Below are positions 1 through 34,244 of a stretch of 34,244 nt of DNA, piece after piece. Positions within the stretch are counted from its first letter, which is position 1. Every line of letters starts with the position of its first letter. Position numbers and translations under genes: made by a program. The notes under the pieces were generated by a model. The model did not search any database, was not told the origin of the DNA, and saw only the letters and a list, made by a program, of their open reading frames with translations. Origin of the DNA: Pontimonas sp. (GTDB taxonomy: Bacteria; Actinomycetota; Actinomycetes; Actinomycetales; Microbacteriaceae); the NCBI GenBank assembly GCA_028096805.1, contig JAOHDU010000010.1, positions 1-34,244 of the forward strand. Direction: 5' to 3'.

Positions 1-44
1 TGCGCCGTTTTGTTGCGCTATTTTTCCCGGTTTCACGGCGTTTT

Positions 45-62
45 CTCGGCTACGCTGACCTG
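45..62 (+). promoter_or_regulatory. Candidate leaderless promoter of the DMT gene
   Basis: A -10-like hexamer TACGCT at 51-56 lies exactly 6 bases before the ATG at 63, and no Shine-Dalgarno sequence precedes that ATG. This is the geometry of a leaderless actinobacterial transcript that starts on the A of ATG. The -35 region is not convincing. The same element recurs at 34183-34200 on the minus strand. Confidence 0.4.
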
Positions 63-989: not shown

Positions 990-1975
990 ACGCTGTCAGC
1001 TCGGTGGCGCTCGGTGATCGTGGCGTAGAGCCCGACGACAACCAGAACGATGAGCACCAGAGCCGGGGAAAATTCGCCTAGAAGCCAGGCGAGGCTGAAG
1101 GGTTCTATTTCCCAACCTTCATAGTCAAAGTTATAGTTCCGCAGCTGGTCAAACGCTTCCGCGCCAAACACAAACGCCATGATGGAAACAACAGCCCCAA
1201 AGACAATGGACAGAACAAAGTTGAGATTCCATGCCCCACTTGCCCAGGCGGTGCGGGGTCGGGGCTCCGGCGGCTTCTCCGCCCGCGCCCGTCGGGCGTA
1301 CCGGGTTCCCAAAATGATGCCTGAGGCAATAATTACTTGGATTATTACCCACACCCAACCCTCGAGCGACGTTCCGGTGATGTCGTAGACAATTAGCCCA
1401 AAAATGATGGCGATGGCTGCCGCGAGGATGGGCAGGGCGTAACCCCACCCCAAAGCTTTTTGTCGGAGTGTGCGGCTGTCATCCTCGGCCGCCGGGTCAT
1501 CAGGTTCGGGACTTCGGCGCACGAACGAGACCAGCAGGAGGGTGACCACGAGGGCCGCGGCTAACACAATCGGGAGGTACACCCCGCCGATTCGGGCGGC
1601 CAAGGATTCCTCCGCACGACTCCCCAGCGCGGTAAGAAAGTTGCCGATGGCAAAAACGGCTCCCCCTGCCAGGGCGATGATGACGGAGAGTGTGCCCAAC
1701 CGGTAGGCAGCGAGGGTTAGCGGGTCCTCTGACTCTGATCGTGCTCGCTCAGTTCGAGCAAGCGAGAGGCCGATAAACGCCCCCAGGGAGAACAACGCAA
1801 TACCCAGCAAGTAAAGGTAGGTGGAGGGACGGATGGACGGGCCGTCGCTCACGAATCCGGAAGCATCGAAGACGGGTTGAATGAAAAGGTTTGACCACGC
1901 CGCGAACATGAAGAGCGACCAGCCGAGCGCTAGCCCCAGAAGAGGAGCAAGGATGGCACGCTGTGAAACCGTCAC
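986..1975 (-). CDS. Unrecognised polytopic membrane protein (329 aa)
   Basis: I do not recognise the family. Hydrophobicity suggests about eight membrane segments, near residues 8-28, 53-73, 94-116, 132-152, 178-198, 206-225, 250-270 and 301-320. Charged linkers at about 74-86, 153-172 and 226-245 divide the protein into two roughly four-helix halves. There is no signal peptide and no catalytic motif I can point to. The GTG start at 1975 lies 9 bases after the IclR gene's stop, so the two are probably co-transcribed. Its stop overlaps the convergent DMT gene's stop by 4 bases. It could be a transporter subunit or a membrane sensor, but nothing in the sequence decides this. Identical copy at 32270-33259. 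Confidence 0.8.
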   Translation of the reverse strand: MTVSQRAILAPLLGLALGWSLFMFAAWSNLFIQPVFDASGFVSDGPSIRPSTYLYLLGIALFSLGAFIGLSLARTERARSESEDPLTLAAYRLGTLSVIIALAGGAVFAIGNFLTALGSRAEESLAARIGGVYLPIVLAAALVVTLLLVSFVRRSPEPDDPAAEDDSRTLRQKALGWGYALPILAAAIAIIFGLIVYDITGTSLEGWVWVIIQVIIASGIILGTRYARRARAEKPPEPRPRTAWASGAWNLNFVLSIVFGAVVSIMAFVFGAEAFDQLRNYNFDYEGWEIEPFSLAWLLGEFSPALVLIVLVVVGLYATITERHRADSV

Positions 1976-1984
1976 CTTATTAGC

Positions 1985-2818
1985 CTACGACCCACTCCAC
2001 CCCAGGCGGGCTGAGAGCGCGCGGGCAGATTCGAATACCAGCTGACCTAAGGCGATGTTGCCGTCCCTAATTCGGTTTTTGCGTGCTCCCACGGAAATTG
2101 CGCCGACCACAATGCCAAAGGCATTTCTCACGGGGGCGGCAGCATCGATGATGTTTTCGGTGAGATCACCATCGGAGATCGCAAATCCGGCTTTCTGCGC
2201 GGTTTTGAGCGCCTTCTGCAGTGCGGCAAGCGAGTTGAGCGAGTTGGGCTTTTTACGCAGACGCCGAACCTCCGTGAGCTGAATGGGCGAAGTTTCAGGG
2301 TGCGCGGGGTAGTCCATTCTCAACTCACCGTGTTCCTCCCACCATGCGGCGATCTCGTCTGGAGTAAACGTGGCCAAGATCGCCCGCCCGGAGGCCGTCT
2401 TCAGCGCGGGCAAGGAGATTCCGTCGAACCTGTCATCCCGCTCGGGATCCTGTGCGAGTTCGGTGTGAACGGTCATGATTTCGCCGCCCCGAAGCACCGT
2501 GAGGTGGGCCGACTCCTCGGCACTGGCCATGAGTTCGAGCAGCGCCGGCCGCGCGAGGGTGGCGAGATGTGCTTCTTGAGTCCGCATGGCCAAGGCGTAT
2601 AAGTGGTGGCCGAGGCGATACTTCCGGGTTAGCCGATCGCGGTTGATGAGGCCTGTCGAGGCCAGCGTGTGGCATACGCGTGAAACCTGGCCTTTATCGC
2701 GGGCTAATCGCGACGCAATTTCTTGGACTCCCATGCCCCCGCCTTGCCAGGCAGCATCCGTCCCCAGAAGCTCGAGGACCTCGAGATCTCGGACCAAACC
2801 GGAGCTGTGACGAGCCAT
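1985..2818 (-). CDS. IclR-family transcriptional regulator
   Basis: A 277-residue protein. Residues about 8-75 form a winged helix-turn-helix (IASRLARDKGQVSRVCHTL, with the wing around RKYRLG), followed by the IclR effector-binding domain (about 85-270), with the usual L-P-A-L-K-T-A-S-G-R-A segment before the middle of that domain. The gene is divergent from the osmoprotectant transporter operon, with 104 bases between them, so it probably controls that operon and itself; this is inference from position. ATG at 2818 fits the domain start, and a TAGAGT hexamer ends 6 bases upstream, suggesting a leaderless transcript. IclR proteins more often govern catabolic genes, so the imported compound may also be a nutrient. 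Identical copy at 31427-32260. Confidence 0.9.
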   Translation of the reverse strand: MARHSSGLVRDLEVLELLGTDAAWQGGGMGVQEIASRLARDKGQVSRVCHTLASTGLINRDRLTRKYRLGHHLYALAMRTQEAHLATLARPALLELMASAEESAHLTVLRGGEIMTVHTELAQDPERDDRFDGISLPALKTASGRAILATFTPDEIAAWWEEHGELRMDYPAHPETSPIQLTEVRRLRKKPNSLNSLAALQKALKTAQKAGFAISDGDLTENIIDAAAPVRNAFGIVVGAISVGARKNRIRDGNIALGQLVFESARALSARLGWSGS

Positions 2819-2922
2819 TGCCCCACTCTACCGGAGTTGATATATCGACAACCGTATTCGCTATCGCGGGGCAGGTTGCCTAACTTGGAGGAATCGAAAC
2901 TAGATGGAGGAATACCGAACCA
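2819..2922. promoter_or_regulatory. Divergent iclR/opu promoter region with candidate operator
   Basis: An imperfect dyad GTTGATATATCGACAAC at 2836-2852 has GTTG/CAAC arms and contains an exact 8-base palindrome GATATATC (2839-2846). It lies just upstream of a minus-strand -10 candidate TAGAGT (2830-2825) for the regulator gene, so bound protein could block that promoter. For the transporter operon a GGAGG ribosome site at 2906-2910 precedes the ATG at 2923 by 12 bases, but no strong -35/-10 pair stands out. The operator role is inference. The mirror copy is at 31323-31426. Confidence 0.4.
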
Positions 2923-3888
2923 ATGAAGAAATCGATGAAAAACATCGTTGCCCTCACCGGGGCAACCGCACTACTGGCTCTCGCAGGTTGCGCGGCCGAT
3001 GGCGCTGGCAACAGCGGCGGATCGGGCTCGCTTTCCGACTACGACCTTTCTGGCATTAATGTTGCAGTGGGTTCGAAAGATTTTGACGAGCAGTTGATTC
3101 TCGGCGAAATGATGGTGCTGGCGTTTGAAGAGGCCGGCGCGACCGTAGACAACAAGGTGAACCTGGGTGGAACAAATATCGCCCGCGCTGCTTTGGAGTC
3201 TGGCGAGATTGACATTTACATGGAGTACAACGGCACCGGGTGGACTGTTCACCTTGGTCAGGAGCAGCCCAGCTTCGACCCTGAAGAACTGACCTCTGGC
3301 GTTCGTGAAATGGACCTGGAAAAGAACGGCATTGTGTGGGTTTCCCGCTCGCCCTTCAACAACACCTACGGTTTCACCTCGTCACCTGAGGTCACCGAAG
3401 CCAACGGTGGTGCTTTCAGCCTCCAGACCATGATGGAGTACGTCCGCGACAACCCAGATGCCGTGGTGTGCATGGAGTCTGAGTTCCCGTCGCGTCCCGA
3501 CGGTCTGATTCTGACCGAAGAAGCAACAGGAATTACCTTGCCTGTTGACCAACAGCTGATCCTCGACACGGGAATCATCTACACCGAGACTGCAGCAAAC
3601 AACTGCGACTTCGGTGAGGTATTCACCACGGATGGTCGTATCCCTGCTCTCAACCTCACGTTGGTTGAAGATCCAGGCGTAAACATCCTTTACAACGTGT
3701 CCGGGACAATCCGTGAGGACAAGTACAACGAGGCTCCTGAAGCCTTCGATGGAATCATCGGAGACGTTCTTGCACCGTTGGACGAAATCCGCATGGCGGG
3801 CCTGAACGCAAAGGTTTCTGCCGAGGGTGAAGAACCTGTGGCAGTGGCCAGCGAATACCTCGTTGAGGAAGGCCTTATTTCCGGCTAG
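2923..3888 (+). CDS. Osmoprotectant (glycine betaine/choline-type) ABC substrate-binding lipoprotein
   Basis: A 321-residue exported lipoprotein. Residues 1-23 form a type II signal peptide with K-K at positions 2-3, a hydrophobic core and lipobox L-A-G-C (Cys23). A Gly/Ser-rich linker follows, then the OpuAC-type solute-binding domain (about 46-320). It begins with V-A-V-G-S-K-D-F-D-E-Q and contains the Y-M-E-Y-N-G-T-G-W segment typical of ProX/OsmF/OpuCC proteins that bind quaternary amines in an aromatic box. It is the first gene of a four-gene importer operon and is separated from the first permease by a strong hairpin. The exact ligand (betaine, choline, carnitine or proline betaine) cannot be assigned. 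Identical copy at 30357-31322. Confidence 0.9.
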   Translation: MKKSMKNIVALTGATALLALAGCAADGAGNSGGSGSLSDYDLSGINVAVGSKDFDEQLILGEMMVLAFEEAGATVDNKVNLGGTNIARAALESGEIDIYMEYNGTGWTVHLGQEQPSFDPEELTSGVREMDLEKNGIVWVSRSPFNNTYGFTSSPEVTEANGGAFSLQTMMEYVRDNPDAVVCMESEFPSRPDGLILTEEATGITLPVDQQLILDTGIIYTETAANNCDFGEVFTTDGRIPALNLTLVEDPGVNILYNVSGTIREDKYNEAPEAFDGIIGDVLAPLDEIRMAGLNAKVSAEGEEPVAVASEYLVEEGLISG

Positions 3889-3897
3889 TTCGATAGG

Positions 3898-3930
3898 AAA
3901 TGCTGGGGACCTTCGGGTCCCCAGCATTTT
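3898..3930 (+). terminator. UUCG-loop hairpin between binding-protein and permease genes
   Basis: A perfect 14-bp stem (3898-3911 with 3916-3929) closes a TTCG tetraloop (3912-3915) and ends in a short T run. It starts 10 bases after the binding-protein stop and finishes 19 bases before the permease ATG. It is either a partial Rho-independent terminator or a 3'-end stabiliser; both would make more binding protein than membrane subunits, which is common in ABC importer operons. The short T run suggests incomplete termination. Confidence 0.75.
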
Positions 3931-3948
3931 CGTACCGAGGTAAAAACT

Positions 3949-4605
3949 ATGGAATTTCTGGGAACCTGGTGGGCCTTTGTCTCCACCCGGTGGGATCAGG
4001 TTCAAACCGGTCTCGCCGAGCACACCGTCTATGTGGTGACGGTGTTGGGCTTTGCCAGCCTGATCGCCATCGTTCTGGGAGTGGTCACACGTCGGCACCC
4101 TCTCGCCAAAGAGCTCTCACTCGCGATCACGTCGGTCTTCTTGACGATCCCGTCACTCGCGCTATTCACAATCTTCATCCCCCTCGTGGGATTGGGCTTC
4201 GCCCCCTCGTTTATTGCTCTTTTGATGTACTCGCTGTTGCCGATTCTGCGGAACACCATCACTGGGCTCGATGGCATTGATCACAGCGTTCTCGAAGCGG
4301 CAAAAGGAATGGGGTTAACTCCCAGCCAAGTCTTGCTGCGGGTGCAGCTGCCCCTCGCCTGGCCGGTCATCATCACCGGAATCAGAATTTCCGCGATGCT
4401 GATTGTGGGCGTCGCGGCACTGGCCACACTGGTGGCGGGAGGGGGCCTGGGTGACTTCATCAAGAGCGGCCTCGCTCGAATCCCACTCCCCAACTCCCTG
4501 GAAGCTATCTGGACGGGAACCATCCTGTGCCTAATTCTCGCGTTAGTGATTGACATCGTTCTCCAGTTGGTCAAGCGCGCCACCATTTCGAAAGGAATCC
4601 GATGA
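3949..4605 (+). CDS. Osmoprotectant ABC transporter permease (OpuCB/OpuCD-like)
   Basis: A 218-residue BPD_transp_1-type permease with about five to six membrane helices. The EAA loop, starting E-A-A-K-G-M-G-L at about residue 116 and followed by the usual L-P-L-A-W-P-V segment, is the contact site for the ATPase. The short length and absence of a fused binding domain are typical of OpuCB/YehW-type subunits. The ATG at 3949 has a GAGG ribosome site at 3937-3940 (8-base spacing). The gene ends in ATGA shared with the next start, implying translational coupling to the ATPase gene. It presumably pairs with the second permease at 5735-6496. Identical copy at 29640-30296. Confidence 0.9.
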   Translation: MEFLGTWWAFVSTRWDQVQTGLAEHTVYVVTVLGFASLIAIVLGVVTRRHPLAKELSLAITSVFLTIPSLALFTIFIPLVGLGFAPSFIALLMYSLLPILRNTITGLDGIDHSVLEAAKGMGLTPSQVLLRVQLPLAWPVIITGIRISAMLIVGVAALATLVAGGGLGDFIKSGLARIPLPNSLEAIWTGTILCLILALVIDIVLQLVKRATISKGIR

Positions 4606-5726
4606 GTGAAACGCTAATTCGACTAGAAAACGTGTCCAAGGCATACCCGGGGACAGAGGCACCCGCAGTGGGTAACCTCACCATGGATGTGCAGGAGGGA
4701 GAAGTCCTCGTCCTTGTTGGCCCATCGGGTTGTGGGAAGAGCACCACCCTGCGGCTGATCAACCGTTTGATTGAGCCGACGGCAGGCCGCATTTACCTCA
4801 AGGGTGAAGACGTTACCGACATTGACCCCAGCGTCCTCCGACGCAAGATCGGCTACGTGATCCAGCAGGTTGGACTTTTCCCACACCGCACCATTGCGGA
4901 GAATATCGCTACCGTGCCCAAGCTTTTGGGCTGGGATAAAGCCGAAACCTCTCGTCGCGTAGACGAGATGCTCGAGCTGGTATCGATGGATCCTGCGGTT
5001 TATCGCGACCGCTACCCGAAAGAGCTCTCGGGTGGACAGGCCCAGCGCGTGGGTGTGGCTCGCGCGTTGGCAGCGGACCCGGATGTGCTCCTGATGGACG
5101 AGCCTTTCGGCGCCATCGACCCGATTACGCGAGACCGCTTACAGAACGAGTTCCTGCGCTTGCAGCAAGACCTCAAAAAGACCATTGTCTTTGTGACGCA
5201 CGATATTGATGAGGCCATCAAGATGGGTAACCGCATCGCGATCCTTCGCGAGGGCTCGGAGATTGCTCAGATCGACACGCCTGAGGCGATTCTGTCGGAT
5301 CCAGCAGATGAGTTCGTCGAGAACTTCCTCGGTTCAGGTGCCATTTTGAAGGGGTTGACTCTCAAGAAGGTCCGGGACATTGAGCTCCACGACATTCCTG
5401 CCTTGGAGATGCCCGTCATGCGTGATGAGGCCCTCAAAGCGCTCGAAAGTTCGCCAGAGAAGACCGCGGTGCTGCTGGATAAAGACCACCGACCCCTTCG
5501 CTGGATCAGCGAGGCATCCCTCAACCGGACAACGCAGCCCATCGAAAAGAGTGGCAAGCCCATCACCATCGACTTGCAGCCGGAAGATACTCTCCAAGAC
5601 GCGCTGGGAGTGATGCTGCAGTCGTCCGTGGGTATGGCCGTGGTCGTTGACCGCGGCGGTAAATATCTCGGGTGTTGCAGCATCGAGAGCTTGGCGTCGA
5701 TGATCATTAGTGGTTCCGGGAGCTAG
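4602..5726 (+). CDS. Osmoprotectant ABC transporter ATP-binding protein (OpuCA-like, with CBS-type tail)
   Basis: A 374-residue cytoplasmic ATPase of the glycine betaine/carnitine/choline importer. Walker A is G-P-S-G-C-G-K-S-T (residues 40-48), the Q-loop is Q88/Q89, the ABC signature L-S-G-G-Q is at 142-146, Walker B is V-L-L-M-D-E (162-167) and the H-loop is His200. After the nucleotide-binding domain (about 1-240) a tail (about 275-374) resembles a tandem CBS module. In OpuA/OpuC systems such modules sense ionic strength or cyclic dinucleotides and gate transport; whether this copy does is unknown. The gene overlaps the upstream permease by 4 bases and is followed 8 bases later by the second permease. 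Identical copy at 28519-29643. Confidence 0.93.
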   Translation: MSETLIRLENVSKAYPGTEAPAVGNLTMDVQEGEVLVLVGPSGCGKSTTLRLINRLIEPTAGRIYLKGEDVTDIDPSVLRRKIGYVIQQVGLFPHRTIAENIATVPKLLGWDKAETSRRVDEMLELVSMDPAVYRDRYPKELSGGQAQRVGVARALAADPDVLLMDEPFGAIDPITRDRLQNEFLRLQQDLKKTIVFVTHDIDEAIKMGNRIAILREGSEIAQIDTPEAILSDPADEFVENFLGSGAILKGLTLKKVRDIELHDIPALEMPVMRDEALKALESSPEKTAVLLDKDHRPLRWISEASLNRTTQPIEKSGKPITIDLQPEDTLQDALGVMLQSSVGMAVVVDRGGKYLGCCSIESLASMIISGSGS

Positions 5727-5734
5727 AGCGCATC

Positions 5735-6496
5735 ATGACTCTTGCAACACCCTCGCGGATTCAAAAAAGCCCCCTGGCGGAGCGGCTTGACGTTATCGTC
5801 ACGCCTGTTTTTGCCGGTTTGTTGGCCATTATTGGAATTGCGGTGTGGCTGTATTCCGACATCGACGACACCACTGCGGCTATTTTGGCGCCAGAGAAGC
5901 TGCAGGGTCAGCTCATCGACACGATTGTGTTGGGTTTTGCCTCGTCAGCACTGGTGATTGTTGTGGCTATTCCGATCGGCATCGCGGTCACCCGGCGCGG
6001 GCTGCCGCGGCTAAAAAACATTTTGGTCGACACTTTAGGTCTCGCTCAGGCGCTTCCGGCCTACGGGTTGATCGTGATTTTCTTCTCGTTCCTCGGCGCC
6101 GGAATCAACACCGTGATCCTCGCTCTGGCCACGTTTTCGCTGCTTCCCGTCTTGAGGAACACGATTGTGGGATTGGAGCAGGTTGACCAAGCGGTGATTG
6201 AAGCGGGTCGCGGTATGGGCTACACGAAGCGTCAGGTGCTCTTTGAGATTGAGCTTCCCTTGGCTGTCCCGGTCATCATCGCGGGAATTCGAACCGCCAT
6301 CGTCATCAATATCGGTATGGCCGCGCTGGCCTTCCTGGTGGGCGGTGGCGGACTTGGCGAGACCATTAACTCAGGCCTCAAGCTCGATAGGAACCCAGCC
6401 ATTCTGATTGGAGCGGTTCTGGTTGCGATTCTCGCGCTGCTGTTCGACTTCCTGAGCGCGATAGCGCAGCGCTACCTCAAGCCCAAAGGAATGTAG
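5735..6496 (+). CDS. Second osmoprotectant ABC transporter permease
   Basis: A 253-residue BPD_transp_1-type permease with about six membrane helices (the first at about 19-43). The EAA loop region is E-A-G-R-G-M-G-Y followed by the L-P-L-A-V-P-V segment. It differs enough from the first permease to suggest a heteromeric OpuCB/OpuCD-type channel. It is the last gene of the operon and starts 8 bases after the ATPase stop. Only 3 bases separate its stop from that of the convergent small membrane protein gene, and no terminator is visible between them, so transcripts may overlap. Identical copy at 27749-28510. Confidence 0.9.
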   Translation: MTLATPSRIQKSPLAERLDVIVTPVFAGLLAIIGIAVWLYSDIDDTTAAILAPEKLQGQLIDTIVLGFASSALVIVVAIPIGIAVTRRGLPRLKNILVDTLGLAQALPAYGLIVIFFSFLGAGINTVILALATFSLLPVLRNTIVGLEQVDQAVIEAGRGMGYTKRQVLFEIELPLAVPVIIAGIRTAIVINIGMAALAFLVGGGGLGETINSGLKLDRNPAILIGAVLVAILALLFDFLSAIAQRYLKPKGM

Positions 6497-6499
6497 GGG

Positions 6500-6868
6500 C
6501 TACTCGCCCTCTTCGACCCACAAGTCATCGTCGGCGCGCAGCGTCTGCCATGCTGCGTAGCCCACGACCGCTAACGCCAGCGTGCCAACGGCCATCAAGA
6601 CGAACACAAACGGGTTGCGGGATTTCTTCATGGGGACCTTTGCTGCAGTAGCCCACGGCAGCCTGCCGAGTGCGGGTTGGATGGTGTCGCGGTAGGTGTC
6701 ATGCGCCAGAGGCAACACCTCGCGTTTGGCAGCATCGCTGGCACTTTTGGACGCGTGACGAGCAACATCTTTGGCGTGAGAAAGGACGTCACGCTGCTCC
6801 GACCAGAGGCCTTGTGCCTCACGAGCCAGCCGAGCGAGCTCTTTACGGGTCTTGCGATCGAGTTCCAT
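6500..6868 (-). CDS. Small single-pass membrane protein of unknown function (122 aa)
   Basis: I do not recognise a named family. The N-terminal 75 residues are very polar and helical (rich in Lys, Arg, Ala and Glu), likely a coiled or amphipathic region. A single membrane segment follows at about residues 86-108, then a short acidic tail ending in E-E-G-E. A longer frame reaches back to 6925, but the ATG at 6868 is preferred: AGGAGG (6878-6873 on the minus strand) sits 4 bases upstream and the extension would run through the promoter. It is divergent from ppiA. It could be a small division- or envelope-associated protein, but there is no evidence beyond its position. Identical copy at 27377-27745. 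Confidence 0.75.
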   Translation of the reverse strand: MELDRKTRKELARLAREAQGLWSEQRDVLSHAKDVARHASKSASDAAKREVLPLAHDTYRDTIQPALGRLPWATAAKVPMKKSRNPFVFVLMAVGTLALAVVGYAAWQTLRADDDLWVEEGE

Positions 6869-6969
6869 GGATCCTCCTGGTGAAGGCTCTATTCTCCCAG
6901 ACTTTGGCAAATAATTCCTGGACACCTGTGGTGAGGGTGCCTCTCAGTGGTGCCTGGCAGAATAGAGGC
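6869..6969. promoter_or_regulatory. Symmetric divergent promoter region upstream of ppiA
   Basis: GGCTCTATTCTCCCAG at 6885-6900 and CTGGCAGAATAGAGGC at 6954-6969 are inverted copies of one another at 14 of 16 positions. Each therefore presents AGAATAGAG to its own downstream gene. On the plus strand CAGAAT (6958-6963) lies 6 bases before the ppiA ATG, consistent with a leaderless start. On the minus strand the matching element leaves a short leader with an AGGAGG site. The pair may be two similar promoters, or the half sites of a shared regulator. Confidence 0.45.
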
Positions 6970-7512
6970 ATGAGCATTCATACACACACCGCCACCTTGC
7001 ACACCAACCACGGAGACATCGTTGTGGGCCTTTATGGCAACCACGCGCCGAAAACTGTAGAAAACTTCGTCGGTCTCGCTACAGGCGAGCTCGAATGGGT
7101 CAACCCCACGACGGGGGCCGCAGGCGAGGGGCCGCTGTATAGTGACGTCATCTTTCACCGCATCATTCCGGGTTTCATGATTCAGGGTGGAGACCCGACC
7201 GGCACGGGTATGGGGGGACCGGGGTACCAGTTCAACGACGAGATTCACCCTGAGCTCGATTTCACTAAGCCCTTCGTTTTGGCAATGGCTAACGCCGGAA
7301 CCCGCGGTGGACAGGGAACAAATGGAAGCCAGTTCTTCATCACCACGGGGGCAACCACCTGGCTGCAGGGAGCTCACACGATTTTTGGTGCCGTTCTGGA
7401 CGAAGCCTCAGAAGCGGTAGTCCGCGCCATTGAGGGCGTGAGTACTGATGGTTCCGACAAGCCTCACGAGGATGTCGTTCTCAAGAGTGTGAGCGTCGCT
7501 GCTGCCTCGTGA
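6970..7512 (+). CDS. ppiA: Cyclophilin-type peptidyl-prolyl cis-trans isomerase
   Basis: A 180-residue cytoplasmic cyclophilin, the usual length. The catalytic and binding motif [14 protein letters not shown] is at residues 62-75 (Arg64, Phe69, Gln72), and G-T-N-G-S-Q-F-F-I-T at about 116-125 completes the active site, with the Trp and His region after it. An open frame extends upstream to 6670, but it runs through the divergent promoter. The ATG at 6970 matches the family N-terminus and has a -10 element 6 bases upstream. The stop overlaps the rhomboid gene's GTG by 4 bases. This is the complete copy; codons 1-107 recur in the right arm, where the gene is broken. Confidence 0.95.
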   Translation: MSIHTHTATLHTNHGDIVVGLYGNHAPKTVENFVGLATGELEWVNPTTGAAGEGPLYSDVIFHRIIPGFMIQGGDPTGTGMGGPGYQFNDEIHPELDFTKPFVLAMANAGTRGGQGTNGSQFFITTGATTWLQGAHTIFGAVLDEASEAVVRAIEGVSTDGSDKPHEDVVLKSVSVAAAS

Positions 7513-11107: not shown

Positions 11108-11143
11108 ACAATTCCTTCAACGAGGGAGACGCACGCGCTCTCG

Positions 11144-15686: not shown

Positions 15687-15688
15687 GA

Positions 15689-24969: not shown

Positions 24970-25665
24970 CTAAAAAAGACGCTCTGCAGAGTCGTCGAGA
25001 CCCCGCATGTTGTCGTAGTCCAACACCACACACTCGATCCCCCGATCCTCCGCGAGGGTGCGGGCCTGCGGCTTGATTTCTTGGGCGGCATAAACGCCGC
25101 GCACGGGGGCGAGGTGCGGATCACGATTCATGAGTTCGAGGTAGCGGGTGAGCTGCTCCACCCCGTCGATATCACCCCGCCGTTTGATCTCCACGGCCAC
25201 AGACGCACCCTTTTCGTCGGTCGCAAGAATGTCGACCGGCCCGATGGCTGTCATGTATTCACGTTTCACGAGAGTTGTTCCCTCACCGAGCAGTTCGATG
25301 TGTTCGGCAAGAAGTTTCTGGAGGTCGGCTTCCACACCATCCTTAATCAAGCCCGGGTCGACACCAAGCTCTCGAGTGAGGTCCTCATGGATTTCGTGAA
25401 TATTGACGACCAAAATATCGGAGGTCTTGTGGTGAATGACTTTCCATACTTCGATTACGCCGGTGTCAGCCACATCGCTATCGGGGGTGAGGACCTCGAG
25501 AGAACACGGTGGCGGCATCCAGTTGAGAGGTTTGTAGCTACCGCCGTCCGAGTGAACCAGCACACTTCCGTCGCTCTTGAGCATGATCACTCGCATGGCC
25601 AAGGGCAAATGAGCGCTCAGCCTTCCGGCGTAGTCGACCGAGCATGTGGCGATGACGAGGCGCAT
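24970..25665 (-). CDS. nucS: Mismatch-specific endonuclease NucS/EndoMS
   Basis: A 231-residue nuclease starting M-R-L-V-I-A. The N-terminal DNA-binding and dimerisation part (about 1-110) is followed by a RecB-like nuclease domain with Asp145 in G-P-V-D-I-L-A-T-D, Glu159 and Lys161 in V-E-I-K-R-R and Gln171 in the E-Q-L-T-R-Y motif. It ends E-R-L-F, resembling the C-terminal clamp-binding tail described for NucS. Actinobacteria lacking MutS/MutL use it for mismatch repair by double-strand cutting at mismatches. The frame is open back to 25809, but ATG 25665 is the family start and the extension overlaps the upstream gene. Confidence 0.95.
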
Positions 25666-25675
25666 GAGAGAGAGC

Positions 25676-26869
25676 CTAGGGAGAAGCTGTTTTGGTCGGT
25701 GAGGCTGCGGGCGAGGCAAAGAATGCGACGAGAATGAGAAGCACAACAGCCCAGAGCGCGGCGAGAAGTCCAATAGCCTCACCGACGCCACCAATGAGGG
25801 GCGGCCCAATCAAGAAGGCGCCGTAGGCGAGCGTGGCTACCGCGCTTACTCGAGCGGCACTTCCGCGCACGTCATCCGCTGCGGCTGACATCGCCACGGG
25901 GAACCCGAGAGAACTGCCGATTCCCCACAAAAGCGCCCCCACACCGCTCACCACAGGCTGGGAAACCATGATGACCAGCGCCAAACCCAAGATGGCCAGG
26001 CCCGCTGAGGCCTGCAACACAGGCACTCGGCCAAAACGGTCAAGAACCCAGACCCCGCCGATTCGACCGGCCATCATGCCAGCAGTGAAGAAACCAAACC
26101 ATAGGGCTCCGATCGCGTTACTTGCGTCTCGGCCATCGACGATGGCCAGGGCCAACCAGTCGTTTGCGGAGCCCTCTGCAAAGGCCATGCCCAGTGCGAT
26201 CAGCCCGATGGCGACAGTACGCGGCTCGCGCCAAACGCCAAGCCGCTCCCCCAGCGTCATGGGCTTTTCTGACGTACTTGCGGTTCTCTCCGCGTCGCCC
26301 AGAAGGAAGCGAGGCAGGGTCAGCAGGGTGGCGCCAGCGACGAAGGCGATCACGAGTGCGTGGGGAGCCAGCCCAATACCGAGAAAGCTCACAAGGGCGG
26401 CAAGACCTGCCCCGGATACCGTCCCCAGCGACCACAACGCGTGAAACCACGGCATGATCATGCGTCCGATGGCACGCTCCACTTGAGCACCCTCGACGTT
26501 CATGGCCACATCGGCAATACCGTTTCCCGCTCCGGCAGCAACAATGGAGACGGCTGTCAGGGCGTAGCTTGACAGGATTTCGCTGCTGAGTCCGATGCCG
26601 GCAAGTCCGAGAAGCCCGAGCAGGCCGAAGACGACAATCGTGTTGCGCTGGCCGATCCACGCCACGATGTGGCTGGAGAAAATAAGACCGCTGACGGCAC
26701 CGATCGCACCGGTGAAAAGCAGCGTGGCGACTTCCCCCGTGCTGAGCCCTAAACCATCCCGAATCGCGGGAACCCGGGCAAGCCAGGTGGAGAAACTGAG
26801 CCCATTAACGAGGAAAACGATAAAGACGGCGTTGCGCCAGGTCTGAGTGTTATGACGGCGTTTTTCCAA
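25676..26869 (-). CDS. Major facilitator superfamily transporter (YbjJ-like)
   Basis: A 397-residue twelve-helix transporter. The N-terminus runs [14 protein letters not shown], followed by [10 protein letters not shown], characteristic of the YbjJ-type MFS branch; substrate unknown. A TTG at 26869 is the only start that fits, since an in-frame stop lies just upstream. It overlaps by 20 bases the end of the preceding frame (the tail of the chimeric ppiA ORF), suggesting that the tail belongs to a genuine upstream operon gene. Its stop is 10 bases before nucS. Confidence 0.87.
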
Positions 26870-27275
26870 CGACTAACCAGGCCTCTCCTCGGTACCGCAT
26901 CCCCAGGGTCAACGCCCTCGCCCCAATGTAGCCGATTCCAAAGGCCGCTTCGAGAGCCATTGCCAAAACGAAGGGCTTAGTGAAATCGAGCTCAGGGTGA
27001 ATCTCGTCGTTGAACTGGTACCCCGGTCCCCCCATACCCGTGCCGGTCGGGTCTCCACCCTGAATCATGAAACCCGGAATGATGCGGTGAAAGATGACGT
27101 CACTATACAGCGGCCCCTCGCCTGCGGCCCCCGTCGTGGGGTTGACCCATTCGAGCTCGCCTGTAGCGAGACCGACGAAGTTTTCTACAGTTTTCGGCGC
27201 GTGGTTGCCATAAAGGCCCACAACGATGTCTCCGTGGTTGGTGTGCAAGGTGGCGGTGTGTGTATGAATGCTCAT
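26850..27275 (-). pseudogene. Chimeric ORF: 5' part of ppiA joined to the 3' end of an unidentified gene
   Basis: A 141-codon frame. Codons 1-107 are identical to ppiA at 6970-7290, so the active-site half G-S-Q-F-F and all that follows is missing. The remaining 34 codons (26954-26850) encode an unrelated tail ending [12 protein letters not shown]. The join is in frame by chance and falls between codons. The tail has normal codon composition and overlaps the MFS start, as a real upstream gene would; I cannot identify it (the end of a small enzyme such as a methyltransferase is possible). A functional cyclophilin is not expected from this frame. Confidence 0.85.
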
Positions 27276-27376
27276 GCCTCTATTCTGCCAGGCACCACTG
27301 AGAGGCACCCTCACCACAGGTGTCCAGGAATTATTTGCCAAAGTCTGGGAGAATAGAGCCTTCACCAGGAGGATCC
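27276..27376. promoter_or_regulatory. Second copy of the symmetric ppiA divergent promoter region
   Basis: Mirror of 6869-6969, with the inverted 16-base elements at 27276-27291 and 27345-27360. Here the ppiA-side promoter faces the truncated chimeric frame. Confidence 0.4.
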
Positions 27377-27745
27377 ATGGAACTCGATCGCAAGACCCGT
27401 AAAGAGCTCGCTCGGCTGGCTCGTGAGGCACAAGGCCTCTGGTCGGAGCAGCGTGACGTCCTTTCTCACGCCAAAGATGTTGCTCGTCACGCGTCCAAAA
27501 GTGCCAGCGATGCTGCCAAACGCGAGGTGTTGCCTCTGGCGCATGACACCTACCGCGACACCATCCAACCCGCACTCGGCAGGCTGCCGTGGGCTACTGC
27601 AGCAAAGGTCCCCATGAAGAAATCCCGCAACCCGTTTGTGTTCGTCTTGATGGCCGTTGGCACGCTGGCGTTAGCGGTCGTGGGCTACGCAGCATGGCAG
27701 ACGCTGCGCGCCGACGATGACTTGTGGGTCGAAGAGGGCGAGTAG
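27377..27745 (+). CDS. Small single-pass membrane protein, second copy
   Basis: Identical to 6500-6868: 122 residues, polar helical N-terminal 75 residues, membrane helix at about 86-108, acidic end. In this orientation the AGGAGG ribosome site is easily read at 27367-27372, 4 bases before the ATG, which settles the start. It is the last intact gene before the repeat's inner junction. Confidence 0.72.
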
Positions 27746-27748
27746 CCC

Positions 27749-28510
27749 CTACATTCCTTTGGGCTTGAGGTAGCGCTGCGCTATCGCGCTCAGGAAGTCG
27801 AACAGCAGCGCGAGAATCGCAACCAGAACCGCTCCAATCAGAATGGCTGGGTTCCTATCGAGCTTGAGGCCTGAGTTAATGGTCTCGCCAAGTCCGCCAC
27901 CGCCCACCAGGAAGGCCAGCGCGGCCATACCGATATTGATGACGATGGCGGTTCGAATTCCCGCGATGATGACCGGGACAGCCAAGGGAAGCTCAATCTC
28001 AAAGAGCACCTGACGCTTCGTGTAGCCCATACCGCGACCCGCTTCAATCACCGCTTGGTCAACCTGCTCCAATCCCACAATCGTGTTCCTCAAGACGGGA
28101 AGCAGCGAAAACGTGGCCAGAGCGAGGATCACGGTGTTGATTCCGGCGCCGAGGAACGAGAAGAAAATCACGATCAACCCGTAGGCCGGAAGCGCCTGAG
28201 CGAGACCTAAAGTGTCGACCAAAATGTTTTTTAGCCGCGGCAGCCCGCGCCGGGTGACCGCGATGCCGATCGGAATAGCCACAACAATCACCAGTGCTGA
28301 CGAGGCAAAACCCAACACAATCGTGTCGATGAGCTGACCCTGCAGCTTCTCTGGCGCCAAAATAGCCGCAGTGGTGTCGTCGATGTCGGAATACAGCCAC
28401 ACCGCAATTCCAATAATGGCCAACAAACCGGCAAAAACAGGCGTGACGATAACGTCAAGCCGCTCCGCCAGGGGGCTTTTTTGAATCCGCGAGGGTGTTG
28501 CAAGAGTCAT
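27749..28510 (-). CDS. Second osmoprotectant permease, repeat copy
   Basis: Identical to 5735-6496 (253 residues, BPD_transp_1 type, EAA loop present). The whole four-gene operon is present in this arm in the same order and spacing, so if the duplication were real both copies would be complete and expressible. Confidence 0.88.
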   Translation of the reverse strand: MTLATPSRIQKSPLAERLDVIVTPVFAGLLAIIGIAVWLYSDIDDTTAAILAPEKLQGQLIDTIVLGFASSALVIVVAIPIGIAVTRRGLPRLKNILVDTLGLAQALPAYGLIVIFFSFLGAGINTVILALATFSLLPVLRNTIVGLEQVDQAVIEAGRGMGYTKRQVLFEIELPLAVPVIIAGIRTAIVINIGMAALAFLVGGGGLGETINSGLKLDRNPAILIGAVLVAILALLFDFLSAIAQRYLKPKGM

Positions 28511-28518
28511 GATGCGCT

Positions 28519-29643
28519 CTAGCTCCCGGAACCACTAATGATCATCGACGCCAAGCTCTCGATGCTGCAACACCCGAGATATTTACCGCCGCGGTCAACG
28601 ACCACGGCCATACCCACGGACGACTGCAGCATCACTCCCAGCGCGTCTTGGAGAGTATCTTCCGGCTGCAAGTCGATGGTGATGGGCTTGCCACTCTTTT
28701 CGATGGGCTGCGTTGTCCGGTTGAGGGATGCCTCGCTGATCCAGCGAAGGGGTCGGTGGTCTTTATCCAGCAGCACCGCGGTCTTCTCTGGCGAACTTTC
28801 GAGCGCTTTGAGGGCCTCATCACGCATGACGGGCATCTCCAAGGCAGGAATGTCGTGGAGCTCAATGTCCCGGACCTTCTTGAGAGTCAACCCCTTCAAA
28901 ATGGCACCTGAACCGAGGAAGTTCTCGACGAACTCATCTGCTGGATCCGACAGAATCGCCTCAGGCGTGTCGATCTGAGCAATCTCCGAGCCCTCGCGAA
29001 GGATCGCGATGCGGTTACCCATCTTGATGGCCTCATCAATATCGTGCGTCACAAAGACAATGGTCTTTTTGAGGTCTTGCTGCAAGCGCAGGAACTCGTT
29101 CTGTAAGCGGTCTCGCGTAATCGGGTCGATGGCGCCGAAAGGCTCGTCCATCAGGAGCACATCCGGGTCCGCTGCCAACGCGCGAGCCACACCCACGCGC
29201 TGGGCCTGTCCACCCGAGAGCTCTTTCGGGTAGCGGTCGCGATAAACCGCAGGATCCATCGATACCAGCTCGAGCATCTCGTCTACGCGACGAGAGGTTT
29301 CGGCTTTATCCCAGCCCAAAAGCTTGGGCACGGTAGCGATATTCTCCGCAATGGTGCGGTGTGGGAAAAGTCCAACCTGCTGGATCACGTAGCCGATCTT
29401 GCGTCGGAGGACGCTGGGGTCAATGTCGGTAACGTCTTCACCCTTGAGGTAAATGCGGCCTGCCGTCGGCTCAATCAAACGGTTGATCAGCCGCAGGGTG
29501 GTGCTCTTCCCACAACCCGATGGGCCAACAAGGACGAGGACTTCTCCCTCCTGCACATCCATGGTGAGGTTACCCACTGCGGGTGCCTCTGTCCCCGGGT
29601 ATGCCTTGGACACGTTTTCTAGTCGAATTAGCGTTTCACTCAT
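28519..29643 (-). CDS. Osmoprotectant ABC ATPase, repeat copy
   Basis: Identical to 4602-5726 (374 residues; Walker A, signature, Walker B and CBS-like tail intact). It overlaps the first permease by 4 bases, as in the left arm. Confidence 0.9.
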   Translation of the reverse strand: MSETLIRLENVSKAYPGTEAPAVGNLTMDVQEGEVLVLVGPSGCGKSTTLRLINRLIEPTAGRIYLKGEDVTDIDPSVLRRKIGYVIQQVGLFPHRTIAENIATVPKLLGWDKAETSRRVDEMLELVSMDPAVYRDRYPKELSGGQAQRVGVARALAADPDVLLMDEPFGAIDPITRDRLQNEFLRLQQDLKKTIVFVTHDIDEAIKMGNRIAILREGSEIAQIDTPEAILSDPADEFVENFLGSGAILKGLTLKKVRDIELHDIPALEMPVMRDEALKALESSPEKTAVLLDKDHRPLRWISEASLNRTTQPIEKSGKPITIDLQPEDTLQDALGVMLQSSVGMAVVVDRGGKYLGCCSIESLASMIISGSGS

Positions 29644-30296
29644 CGGATTCCTTTCGAAATGGTGGCGCGCTTGACCAACTGGAGAACGATGTCAATCACT
29701 AACGCGAGAATTAGGCACAGGATGGTTCCCGTCCAGATAGCTTCCAGGGAGTTGGGGAGTGGGATTCGAGCGAGGCCGCTCTTGATGAAGTCACCCAGGC
29801 CCCCTCCCGCCACCAGTGTGGCCAGTGCCGCGACGCCCACAATCAGCATCGCGGAAATTCTGATTCCGGTGATGATGACCGGCCAGGCGAGGGGCAGCTG
29901 CACCCGCAGCAAGACTTGGCTGGGAGTTAACCCCATTCCTTTTGCCGCTTCGAGAACGCTGTGATCAATGCCATCGAGCCCAGTGATGGTGTTCCGCAGA
30001 ATCGGCAACAGCGAGTACATCAAAAGAGCAATAAACGAGGGGGCGAAGCCCAATCCCACGAGGGGGATGAAGATTGTGAATAGCGCGAGTGACGGGATCG
30101 TCAAGAAGACCGACGTGATCGCGAGTGAGAGCTCTTTGGCGAGAGGGTGCCGACGTGTGACCACTCCCAGAACGATGGCGATCAGGCTGGCAAAGCCCAA
30201 CACCGTCACCACATAGACGGTGTGCTCGGCGAGACCGGTTTGAACCTGATCCCACCGGGTGGAGACAAAGGCCCACCAGGTTCCCAGAAATTCCAT
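29640..30296 (-). CDS. Osmoprotectant permease, repeat copy
   Basis: Identical to 3949-4605 (218 residues, EAA loop from about residue 116). Preceded by the same GAGG ribosome site and hairpin. Confidence 0.88.
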   Translation of the reverse strand: MEFLGTWWAFVSTRWDQVQTGLAEHTVYVVTVLGFASLIAIVLGVVTRRHPLAKELSLAITSVFLTIPSLALFTIFIPLVGLGFAPSFIALLMYSLLPILRNTITGLDGIDHSVLEAAKGMGLTPSQVLLRVQLPLAWPVIITGIRISAMLIVGVAALATLVAGGGLGDFIKSGLARIPLPNSLEAIWTGTILCLILALVIDIVLQLVKRATISKGIR

Positions 30297-30314
30297 AGTT
30301 TTTACCTCGGTACG

Positions 30315-30347
30315 AAAATGCTGGGGACCCGAAGGTCCCCAGCATTT
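30315..30347 (-). terminator. UUCG-loop hairpin, repeat copy
   Basis: Mirror of 3898-3930: perfect 14-bp stem with a TTCG loop on the minus strand, between binding-protein and permease genes. Confidence 0.72.
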
Positions 30348-30356
30348 CCTATCGAA

Positions 30357-31322
30357 CTAGCCGGAAATAAGGCCTTCCTCAACGAGGTATTCGCTGGCCA
30401 CTGCCACAGGTTCTTCACCCTCGGCAGAAACCTTTGCGTTCAGGCCCGCCATGCGGATTTCGTCCAACGGTGCAAGAACGTCTCCGATGATTCCATCGAA
30501 GGCTTCAGGAGCCTCGTTGTACTTGTCCTCACGGATTGTCCCGGACACGTTGTAAAGGATGTTTACGCCTGGATCTTCAACCAACGTGAGGTTGAGAGCA
30601 GGGATACGACCATCCGTGGTGAATACCTCACCGAAGTCGCAGTTGTTTGCTGCAGTCTCGGTGTAGATGATTCCCGTGTCGAGGATCAGCTGTTGGTCAA
30701 CAGGCAAGGTAATTCCTGTTGCTTCTTCGGTCAGAATCAGACCGTCGGGACGCGACGGGAACTCAGACTCCATGCACACCACGGCATCTGGGTTGTCGCG
30801 GACGTACTCCATCATGGTCTGGAGGCTGAAAGCACCACCGTTGGCTTCGGTGACCTCAGGTGACGAGGTGAAACCGTAGGTGTTGTTGAAGGGCGAGCGG
30901 GAAACCCACACAATGCCGTTCTTTTCCAGGTCCATTTCACGAACGCCAGAGGTCAGTTCTTCAGGGTCGAAGCTGGGCTGCTCCTGACCAAGGTGAACAG
31001 TCCACCCGGTGCCGTTGTACTCCATGTAAATGTCAATCTCGCCAGACTCCAAAGCAGCGCGGGCGATATTTGTTCCACCCAGGTTCACCTTGTTGTCTAC
31101 GGTCGCGCCGGCCTCTTCAAACGCCAGCACCATCATTTCGCCGAGAATCAACTGCTCGTCAAAATCTTTCGAACCCACTGCAACATTAATGCCAGAAAGG
31201 TCGTAGTCGGAAAGCGAGCCCGATCCGCCGCTGTTGCCAGCGCCATCGGCCGCGCAACCTGCGAGAGCCAGTAGTGCGGTTGCCCCGGTGAGGGCAACGA
31301 TGTTTTTCATCGATTTCTTCAT
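30357..31322 (-). CDS. Osmoprotectant substrate-binding lipoprotein, repeat copy
   Basis: Identical to 2923-3888 (321 residues, lipobox Cys23, OpuAC-type domain). Confidence 0.88.
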   Translation of the reverse strand: MKKSMKNIVALTGATALLALAGCAADGAGNSGGSGSLSDYDLSGINVAVGSKDFDEQLILGEMMVLAFEEAGATVDNKVNLGGTNIARAALESGEIDIYMEYNGTGWTVHLGQEQPSFDPEELTSGVREMDLEKNGIVWVSRSPFNNTYGFTSSPEVTEANGGAFSLQTMMEYVRDNPDAVVCMESEFPSRPDGLILTEEATGITLPVDQQLILDTGIIYTETAANNCDFGEVFTTDGRIPALNLTLVEDPGVNILYNVSGTIREDKYNEAPEAFDGIIGDVLAPLDEIRMAGLNAKVSAEGEEPVAVASEYLVEEGLISG

Positions 31323-31426
31323 TGGTTCGGTATTCCTCCATCTAGTTTCGATTCCTCCAAGTTAGGCAACCTGCCCCGCGATAGCGAATACGGTTGTCGA
31401 TATATCAACTCCGGTAGAGTGGGGCA
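31323..31426. promoter_or_regulatory. Divergent iclR/opu promoter region, repeat copy
   Basis: Mirror of 2819-2922, including the GTTG/CAAC dyad (31393-31409) with its GATATATC core, and TAGAGT at 31415-31420 six bases before the regulator's ATG. Confidence 0.38.
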
Positions 31427-32260
31427 ATGGCTCGTCACAGCTCCGGTTTGGTCCGAGATCTCGAGGTCCTCGAGCTTCTGGGGACGGATGCTGCCTGGCA
31501 AGGCGGGGGCATGGGAGTCCAAGAAATTGCGTCGCGATTAGCCCGCGATAAAGGCCAGGTTTCACGCGTATGCCACACGCTGGCCTCGACAGGCCTCATC
31601 AACCGCGATCGGCTAACCCGGAAGTATCGCCTCGGCCACCACTTATACGCCTTGGCCATGCGGACTCAAGAAGCACATCTCGCCACCCTCGCGCGGCCGG
31701 CGCTGCTCGAACTCATGGCCAGTGCCGAGGAGTCGGCCCACCTCACGGTGCTTCGGGGCGGCGAAATCATGACCGTTCACACCGAACTCGCACAGGATCC
31801 CGAGCGGGATGACAGGTTCGACGGAATCTCCTTGCCCGCGCTGAAGACGGCCTCCGGGCGGGCGATCTTGGCCACGTTTACTCCAGACGAGATCGCCGCA
31901 TGGTGGGAGGAACACGGTGAGTTGAGAATGGACTACCCCGCGCACCCTGAAACTTCGCCCATTCAGCTCACGGAGGTTCGGCGTCTGCGTAAAAAGCCCA
32001 ACTCGCTCAACTCGCTTGCCGCACTGCAGAAGGCGCTCAAAACCGCGCAGAAAGCCGGATTTGCGATCTCCGATGGTGATCTCACCGAAAACATCATCGA
32101 TGCTGCCGCCCCCGTGAGAAATGCCTTTGGCATTGTGGTCGGCGCAATTTCCGTGGGAGCACGCAAAAACCGAATTAGGGACGGCAACATCGCCTTAGGT
32201 CAGCTGGTATTCGAATCTGCCCGCGCGCTCTCAGCCCGCCTGGGGTGGAGTGGGTCGTAG
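31427..32260 (+). CDS. IclR-family regulator, repeat copy
   Basis: Identical to 1985-2818 (277 residues, winged helix-turn-helix plus IclR effector domain), divergent from the second opu operon copy. Confidence 0.88.
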   Translation: MARHSSGLVRDLEVLELLGTDAAWQGGGMGVQEIASRLARDKGQVSRVCHTLASTGLINRDRLTRKYRLGHHLYALAMRTQEAHLATLARPALLELMASAEESAHLTVLRGGEIMTVHTELAQDPERDDRFDGISLPALKTASGRAILATFTPDEIAAWWEEHGELRMDYPAHPETSPIQLTEVRRLRKKPNSLNSLAALQKALKTAQKAGFAISDGDLTENIIDAAAPVRNAFGIVVGAISVGARKNRIRDGNIALGQLVFESARALSARLGWSGS

Positions 32261-32269
32261 GCTAATAAG

Positions 32270-33259
32270 GTGACGGTTTCACAGCGTGCCATCCTTGCTC
32301 CTCTTCTGGGGCTAGCGCTCGGCTGGTCGCTCTTCATGTTCGCGGCGTGGTCAAACCTTTTCATTCAACCCGTCTTCGATGCTTCCGGATTCGTGAGCGA
32401 CGGCCCGTCCATCCGTCCCTCCACCTACCTTTACTTGCTGGGTATTGCGTTGTTCTCCCTGGGGGCGTTTATCGGCCTCTCGCTTGCTCGAACTGAGCGA
32501 GCACGATCAGAGTCAGAGGACCCGCTAACCCTCGCTGCCTACCGGTTGGGCACACTCTCCGTCATCATCGCCCTGGCAGGGGGAGCCGTTTTTGCCATCG
32601 GCAACTTTCTTACCGCGCTGGGGAGTCGTGCGGAGGAATCCTTGGCCGCCCGAATCGGCGGGGTGTACCTCCCGATTGTGTTAGCCGCGGCCCTCGTGGT
32701 CACCCTCCTGCTGGTCTCGTTCGTGCGCCGAAGTCCCGAACCTGATGACCCGGCGGCCGAGGATGACAGCCGCACACTCCGACAAAAAGCTTTGGGGTGG
32801 GGTTACGCCCTGCCCATCCTCGCGGCAGCCATCGCCATCATTTTTGGGCTAATTGTCTACGACATCACCGGAACGTCGCTCGAGGGTTGGGTGTGGGTAA
32901 TAATCCAAGTAATTATTGCCTCAGGCATCATTTTGGGAACCCGGTACGCCCGACGGGCGCGGGCGGAGAAGCCGCCGGAGCCCCGACCCCGCACCGCCTG
33001 GGCAAGTGGGGCATGGAATCTCAACTTTGTTCTGTCCATTGTCTTTGGGGCTGTTGTTTCCATCATGGCGTTTGTGTTTGGCGCGGAAGCGTTTGACCAG
33101 CTGCGGAACTATAACTTTGACTATGAAGGTTGGGAAATAGAACCCTTCAGCCTCGCCTGGCTTCTAGGCGAATTTTCCCCGGCTCTGGTGCTCATCGTTC
33201 TGGTTGTCGTCGGGCTCTACGCCACGATCACCGAGCGCCACCGAGCTGACAGCGTCTAG
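32270..33259 (+). CDS. Unrecognised polytopic membrane protein, repeat copy
   Basis: Identical to 986-1975 (329 residues, about eight membrane helices, GTG start with an AAGG-like site just upstream). Its stop interlocks with the DMT gene's stop in CTAG, as in the left arm. Confidence 0.78.
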   Translation: MTVSQRAILAPLLGLALGWSLFMFAAWSNLFIQPVFDASGFVSDGPSIRPSTYLYLLGIALFSLGAFIGLSLARTERARSESEDPLTLAAYRLGTLSVIIALAGGAVFAIGNFLTALGSRAEESLAARIGGVYLPIVLAAALVVTLLLVSFVRRSPEPDDPAAEDDSRTLRQKALGWGYALPILAAAIAIIFGLIVYDITGTSLEGWVWVIIQVIIASGIILGTRYARRARAEKPPEPRPRTAWASGAWNLNFVLSIVFGAVVSIMAFVFGAEAFDQLRNYNFDYEGWEIEPFSLAWLLGEFSPALVLIVLVVVGLYATITERHRADSV

Positions 33260-34182
33260 AGGGTCTCGGGTATTTCTTCCCCTTTAGGAATCCGCCGGCC
33301 TTTTCGCACCAGGGCTTGCCGCTGCCTACTGGCGAGATAACTCCCCGCCACAACGAGCGGGAATCCCACCACAATGCCGATCGTGATGGGCTCTGCCAAG
33401 AAGACGACACCCAAAATGGCCGCCACTGCCAGATTGACATAGGTAATCAGGCTCGCGCGAGCCGGCCCAATCTGTCGAATGAGGGCAAAGAAGAGGACAA
33501 ACGCCAGCGCCGAGCAGACAGCGCCGAGCACCAAAAGGGCCGTCCACGCCTGCCAGGAGGGCCCGGCCGCGATGTTCTGAGGCAAAGAAACCGCAGCAAA
33601 CGGCGCGTAAACAATGCTGACGATGGCAAGAGACACAGCGATCACCCCGAGGGTCGGCACCTCCTGAGGCATGCGATTGACCACAATTGGCGCAACCGCG
33701 TAACCGAGGGCGGCACCGAGCATCATCAGGATCGGGGCTAACGGCGTCACTCCGGAGAAAGCGTCAATCCCGACCAATGCGATCACTCCGGCCAACCCGA
33801 CGACCAACCCGAGAACCGTGAGTGGGTGCCAGGCTGATTTATCCCCTAACAGACCCACAAAAAACGCCGCAATAAAGGGCACAGTTGTGACGAGCAAGCT
33901 CGCCAAGGACGACGAAATATCCTTCTGGGCCTCGGGGATGAGGAACCAGGGCCCGATCATTTCTAGGGCTGCAAACGCCACCACCGCAGGCCACGCTCTA
34001 AGCGTTGCTTTGAGCATCCCTTTGGCCATGGCAATCGGCAAAAGAATGAGCGCACCTAAAAAGACGCGGGCGAACACCAAACTGGTGGTGTCGAAGTGTT
34101 CGAGGGCAATTTCGATGAAGAAATAGGGGGTTCCCCAGATGATGCCAACAATAAGAAAGAGCAGCAGGGATTTTCTGGGCAT
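33256..34182 (-). CDS. DMT superfamily permease, repeat copy
   Basis: Identical to 63-989 (308 residues, EamA-type). Its start lies 62 bases from the right end of the window, with the TACGCT element at 34194-34189. Confidence 0.86.
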   Translation of the reverse strand: MPRKSLLLFLIVGIIWGTPYFFIEIALEHFDTTSLVFARVFLGALILLPIAMAKGMLKATLRAWPAVVAFAALEMIGPWFLIPEAQKDISSSLASLLVTTVPFIAAFFVGLLGDKSAWHPLTVLGLVVGLAGVIALVGIDAFSGVTPLAPILMMLGAALGYAVAPIVVNRMPQEVPTLGVIAVSLAIVSIVYAPFAAVSLPQNIAAGPSWQAWTALLVLGAVCSALAFVLFFALIRQIGPARASLITYVNLAVAAILGVVFLAEPITIGIVVGFPLVVAGSYLASRQRQALVRKGRRIPKGEEIPETL

Positions 34183-34244
34183 CAGGTCAGCGTAGCCGAG
34201 AAAACGCCGTGAAACCGGGAAAAATAGCGCAACAAAACGGCGCA

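What the first reader, a model, noticed from the sequence alone, without database searches (positions are those of the whole stretch)
26850..27275. ppiA broken at codon 107 and fused in frame to an unidentified gene end
The right-arm junction cuts a housekeeping cyclophilin gene before its G-S-Q-F-F active-site half. The next 34 codons look like the genuine 3' end of another gene that overlaps the MFS start by 20 bases. The true neighbour of the MFS/nucS operon is therefore probably this unknown gene, and the join marks the false or recombinational breakpoint. Microhomology cannot be judged because the unbroken parent of the unknown gene is not in the window.
Basis: partly seen in the sequence, partly recalled or inferred. 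Interest (0 to 1): 0.5.

Follow-up and report, generated by a model that had tools for sequence, protein, structure and literature searches.

The report
False join made by DNA amplification
The broken cyclophilin gene is most likely not a real gene fusion but a false inverted join, probably made while very little DNA was copied up for sequencing; the intact gene lies elsewhere in the same contig.

Summary
At 26850-27275 (-), the first 107 codons of a cyclophilin gene run in frame into 34 codons of another gene. The contig is a perfect fold-back: 1-7290 equals the reverse complement of 26955-34244, with no mismatch. An intact copy of the same cyclophilin lies at 6970-7512. The "unidentified gene end" is the C-terminus of a MATE-family efflux transporter. 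The tail equals the last 34 residues of a 448-residue MATE protein in the nearest relative, where that gene sits directly upstream of the MFS gene and nucS. 0 of 18 other genomes of the genus hold the fusion. In the two nearest relatives the MATE codon at the break is GCT, as in ppiA, so about 3 nt were shared. The rest of the MATE gene was not found in this 74%-complete assembly. A second contig, C24, has another inverted join with 6 shared nt. This matches inverted chimeras made by phi29 amplification of single cells (PMC1855051). It is most likely a technical artefact, not biology.

The parts
1..7290 (+). Left arm of the perfect inverted repeat; the genuine copy, continuous with 7291 onwards
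   Evidence: Exact identity to the reverse complement of 26955-34244 over 7290 bases; collinear with relatives across 7290/7291
6970..7512 (+). Intact cyclophilin (ppiA) gene, 180 aa, with GSQFF
   Evidence: Translation; Pfam PF00160 over positions 3-159 of 159, E 1.5e-41; 99% and 98% identical in G012 and G002
26955..34244 (-). Right arm: false second copy of 1-7290 in reverse orientation
   Evidence: no inverted repeat (85% identity or more) within the 9 stretches of 8 relatives compared
26955..27275 (-). Truncated copy of ppiA, codons 1-107
   Evidence: Pfam PF00160 only to profile position 95 of 159
26955..26957 (.). Inferred 3-nt microhomology at the junction (AGC on +, GCT on -)
   Evidence: Both nearest relatives have GCT at the MATE codon before LEAAF, and ppiA codon 107 is GCT; blastn with both runs to 26957
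26850..26954 (-). Last 34 codons and stop of a MATE-family efflux gene; its upstream part was not found in the assembly
   Evidence: Tail identical to the last 34 residues of L004:2672-4018, which is PF01554 and TIGR00797; rest not found in G000
25676..26869 (-). MFS transporter gene downstream of the MATE gene, overlapping its end by 20 bases
   Evidence: PF07690; 99% identical in G012
24970..25674 (-). nucS gene (approximate 5' end)
   Evidence: PF01939 and PF21003

Best explanation
The fusion is a technical chimera. [quoted passage not shown] This joined the MATE end to an inverted copy of the segment that begins inside ppiA. The assembler had no (or too few) reads for the real continuation of the MATE gene, so it followed the chimeric join and laid the 7290-base segment down a second time in reverse. 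Shown: the inverted repeat, the intact ppiA, the identity of the second gene, the arrangement in relatives, the missing continuation, and a second inverted join in the same assembly. Inferred: the amplification step, the microhomology (from relatives) and the assembler's path.
For: Arms identical over 7290 bases, ending together at the two contig ends. Intact ppiA in the left arm. Relatives keep ppiA and the MATE/MFS pair about 17-21 kb apart and on opposite strands in 7 of 7 genomes with both on one contig (coordinates). 0 of 18 other genomes of the genus have the join. With the 10 relative loci, of 19, that align through to the break, blastn over the MFS side stops at 26948-26957. About 3 shared nt, far below any assembler overlap, so a physical chimeric molecule is likelier than a repeat-induced misjoin. 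The MATE 5' part was not found in G000, and the next 5.5 kb gave no match (without a positive control). Contig C24 has a second inverted join: its halves lie in opposite orientation in 6 of 6 relatives with both on one contig, with CGCGCG shared. Its normal continuation is missing for 1.2 kb, up to the end of contig C20. In a single E. coli cell amplification 85% of 475 chimeras were inverted and 76.8% had 2 or more complementary bases (PMC1855051; abstract, Results and Discussion read).
Against: The joined points lie 19,664 bases apart. In that study 337 of 406 inverted chimeras were under 10 kb apart, and only 34.8% of inverted ones above 10 kb had complementarity. Three or more shared bases occur by chance in about 5% of random joins (my arithmetic), and the 3 nt are inferred from relatives, not seen. 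Nothing in the tools names the source, so single-cell origin is inferred, not shown; most of the relatives named are MAGs. C24 alone could be a real inversion. Only one long inverted repeat was found in the 785,504 bases of G000 compared, so the fold-back with duplicated arms is a single case here. No read data.
Confidence: 0.9

Rival explanations
1. A real inverted duplication in the sequenced cell: a replication-linked template switch at a 3-nt microhomology joined the MATE gene to an inverted copy of the segment that begins in ppiA, as in tandem-inversion or fold-back duplications.
For: The anatomy (inverted, microhomology, perfect arms) is the same as an amplification chimera would give. 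A second inverted join exists in the assembly, and that one taken alone could be a real inversion.
Against: Not in any of 18 other genomes of the genus. The normal MATE continuation, which a duplication would normally keep, was not found in the assembly. A permanent loss would remove a region that in the nearest relative carries a 6-phosphofructokinase-like frame (name by recall, not scanned). Arms show no divergence.
Confidence: 0.06
2. A pure assembler error: the graph walk turned back on itself at a repeat, with no chimeric molecule.
For: Exactly symmetrical contig ends suggest that one assembled segment was laid down twice.
Against: The two sequences share only about 3 nt at the join, too little for an assembly overlap. 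No repeat of 100 bases or more other than the arms themselves touches the site in the 785,504 bases of G000 compared.
Confidence: 0.04

Closest known systems
Inverted chimeras of multiple displacement amplification (Lasken and Stockwell 2007, PMC1855051)
   Same: Second segment inverted, sequence lost at the join, short complementarity at the junction; two such joins seen in this assembly.
   Different: Joined points are 19.7 kb apart rather than under 10 kb as in most; amplification of this sample is not documented in the tools.
Palindromic artefacts in amplified long reads (Pacasus, PMC6218980, passages seen)
   Same: Artificial inverted duplications that reach assemblies, read there as an artefact of whole-genome amplification.
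   Different: Those are long-read palindromes; here there is a 19.7-kb unpaired middle and the sequencing method is unknown.
MATE-family efflux transporter gene (PF01554, TIGR00797) beside MFS and nucS in relatives of this genome
   Same: The 34-residue tail is the exact C-terminus of this gene in the nearest relative.
   Different: Only the last 34 codons are present here; the rest was not found in the assembly.
Tandem inversion duplication or fold-back duplication in living cells (recalled; a search listing only)
   Same: Inverted duplication with microhomology.
   Different: Would normally keep the original flank; that flank was not found here and no relative examined shows the join.

Membership tests
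MDA inverted chimera | Second segment joined in inverted orientation | tested here: met
   26955-34244 is the reverse complement of 1-7290
MDA inverted chimera | Short complementarity at the junction (2-21 nt in most) | tested here: met
   3 nt, inferred from 2 of 2 nearest relatives; the other relatives aligned there have other codons
MDA inverted chimera | Joined points usually under 10 kb apart | tested here: not met
   19,664 bases apart; a usual, not a necessary, feature: 69 of 406 inverted chimeras were farther apart
MDA inverted chimera | Several independent joins of the kind in one amplified assembly | tested here: met
   Second inverted join in C24 at 4559-4564; 2 of the 13 own contigs that map to G001:C6 turn round. 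C24 alone could also be a real inversion
MDA inverted chimera | Sample was amplified before sequencing | not testable with these tools
Real inverted duplication | Original flank of the duplicated segment is kept | tested here: inconclusive
   MATE 5' part and the next 5.5 kb not found in G000, but the assembly is only 74% complete
Real inverted duplication | Junction present in unamplified DNA | not testable with these tools
   No reads held
MATE efflux gene (for the tail) | Full-length parent has MatE domains | tested here: met
   PF01554 E 9.4e-43, TIGR00797 E 1.9e-80 above cut-off, on the relative's protein; the DinF model is matched below its cut-off
Gene fusion (ppiA-MATE) as a functional protein | Conserved in relatives or keeps the catalytic domain | tested here: not met
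   0 of 18 other genomes of the genus; cyclophilin domain cut at profile position 95 of 159

The most novel reading that the evidence does not exclude
The cell really carried a large inverted duplication made by template switching at a 3-nt microhomology, with a second inversion at C24, which would point to unusual fold-back genome instability in this small-genome actinobacterium.
Probability: 0.05. Interest if true: 0.35.

Novelty: not a real feature. Interest (0 to 1): 0.07.

Why it matters
It warns that this assembly holds at least one, and probably two, inverted chimeric joins. Annotated naively, it yields a spurious truncated cyclophilin, a spurious ppiA-MATE fusion, and about 7 kb of genes counted twice, including a glycine-betaine-type transporter operon. 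It also restores the likely real local order: MATE, MFS, nucS.

Tried and rejected
Gene fusion or ancestral arrangement: rejected, 0 of 18 other genomes of the genus.

Finding the MATE parent elsewhere in the same genome: not found. One search had no positive control of its own; the same kind of search did recover the 80 bases that are present.

Continuation beyond the contig's left end: G012:C52 1-2507 found nothing more in G000. Inconclusive, because G002, G016 and G001 also lack most of it.

Other long inverted repeats: none of 100 bases or more (90% identity) besides C2 in 785,504 fetched bases of G000's 990,271 (the count includes the window itself, 3,301 overlapping bases of C41 and a short overlap in C40).

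Naming the source: genome contigs gave 18 loci of relatives, but not the own record. Papers on Pontimonas with single amplified genomes: 2 listed, not read. Searches (no paper) gave listings only and nothing that was used as evidence.

Full report
What is there. The window is the whole contig C2 of genome G000 (990,271 bases, 41 contigs, 74.4% complete). Bases 1-7290 are the exact reverse complement of 26955-34244, with no mismatch. The cyclophilin is intact in the left arm at 6970-7512, 180 residues, with GSQFF and a full Pfam PF00160 match, while the fused copy's match stops at profile position 95 of 159. So the genome is not missing its ppiA; the broken copy is a second, mirrored one.

The unknown gene. 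In the nearest relative (G012, MFS protein 99% identical) the frame directly upstream of the MFS gene is 448 residues long. Its last 34 residues equal the tail, 34 of 34. It is a MATE family efflux transporter (PF01554; TIGR00797 above cut-off, DinF model below cut-off). Of 19 relative loci (L004-L022), 15 have this MATE gene directly upstream of the MFS gene on the same strand, among them 14 of 14 of the same genus. Of the 4 others, all of other genera, L020 shows a MATE end further off at the edge of the locus, and L019, L021 and L022 show none within the flank held. The MFS gene is followed by nucS (PF01939 and PF21003).

The join is private to this contig as far as searched. The fused protein was searched in the 19 genomes returned for the genus. 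Only G000 matches over the whole length. Of the 18 others, 15 match the cyclophilin part and 14 match the tail, always at separate places; several of these genomes are incomplete. In 7 of 7 genomes with both on one contig (G001, G002, G005, G007, G011, G015, G016) they lie about 17-21 kb apart and on opposite strands, as the left arm and the MFS gene do in this window. The right arm puts ppiA on the same strand as the MFS gene, which none of these 7 does. In blastn with 19 relative loci, 10 align through the MFS gene and stop at 26957 (2 loci), 26954 (7 loci) or 26948 (1 locus); the other 9, more distant, align only in shorter pieces.

Breakpoint. In L004 and L005, the two nearest relatives, the MATE codon before LEAAF is GCT; ppiA codon 107 is also GCT. 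If this genome had the same codon, 3 nt were shared. Other relatives have ATG or other codons, so this is an inference. By my own arithmetic a random join shares 3 or more nt about 5% of the time. Three bases are too few for an assembly overlap, so a chimeric molecule probably existed.

What is missing. The MATE gene beyond the break is not found in G000 (which recovers only the 80 bases present). The next 5.5 kb of the relative's contig gives no match either (without a positive control). An assembler with no reads for the true continuation would take the chimeric path.

A second join. Comparing the fetched stretches of G000 (785,504 of 990,271 bases) with a 365,593-base contig of G001, 13 contigs have matches over 250 bases. 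Of these, 11 keep one orientation throughout; C2 and C24 turn round. C24's halves lie in opposite orientation in 6 of 6 relatives that hold both on one contig: G012, G002, G016, G017 and G005 and G001. In G009 and G011 they are on different contigs and G007 lacks one long half. At C24's break six bases, CGCGCG, are shared with G012 on both sides. Its normal continuation is absent for 1.2 kb, up to the very end of contig C20, and the skipped piece gives no match. C24 taken alone could be a real inversion; with C2 it makes a pattern.

Source. Contig lengths follow the order that names 1, 10, 11 ... 19, 2, 20 ... 41 would give if numbered nearly by length, and the smallest contig is 2354 bases. 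That fits an assembly of one genome, such as a single-cell genome, but a renumbered metagenome bin could look the same. The nearest named relatives are MAGs, several called Pontimonas.

Mechanism. Lasken and Stockwell (PMC1855051; abstract, Results and Discussion read) amplified one E. coli cell: 406 of 475 chimeras (85%) were inverted, 337 of 406 under 10 kb apart, and 76.8% had 2 or more complementary bases at the join. The C2 join is inverted with 3 nt, but 19,664 bases apart, in the minority class, where complementarity was seen in only 34.8%. The C24 join is inverted with 6 nt and about 7.5 kb apart in G012, in the majority class. PMC6218980 (passages) reports artificial inverted duplications that reach assemblies after amplification.

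Verdict. The feature is an artefact of amplification and assembly with confidence 0.9. A real inverted duplication is not excluded (0.06), nor a pure assembler error (0.04). Interest is low; its use is as a correction.

Noticed in passing
L086 (G000:C24) 4559-4564: A second inverted junction in the same assembly: the halves of this 8440-base contig are in opposite orientation in 6 of 6 relatives with both on one contig, with CGCGCG shared at the break.
   Followed up: yes
window 2923-6493 and its mirror 27752-31322: Glycine-betaine-type ABC transporter operon (OpuAC, ABC_tran, two BPD_transp_1 proteins) appears twice only because of the inverted arm.
   Followed up: partly
window 9353-18125: Actinobacterial cell-division and signalling cluster: two Ser/Thr kinases (one with PASTA domains), PBP transpeptidase, FtsW/RodA, PP2C phosphatase and two FHA proteins; ordinary.
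   Followed up: no
L100 (G012:C73) versus L101 (G012:C52): G012 (10% contamination) is 93% identical to the window over one contig and 91% over the other, and 97% over the MFS stretch; mixed strains in that bin are possible.
   Followed up: no
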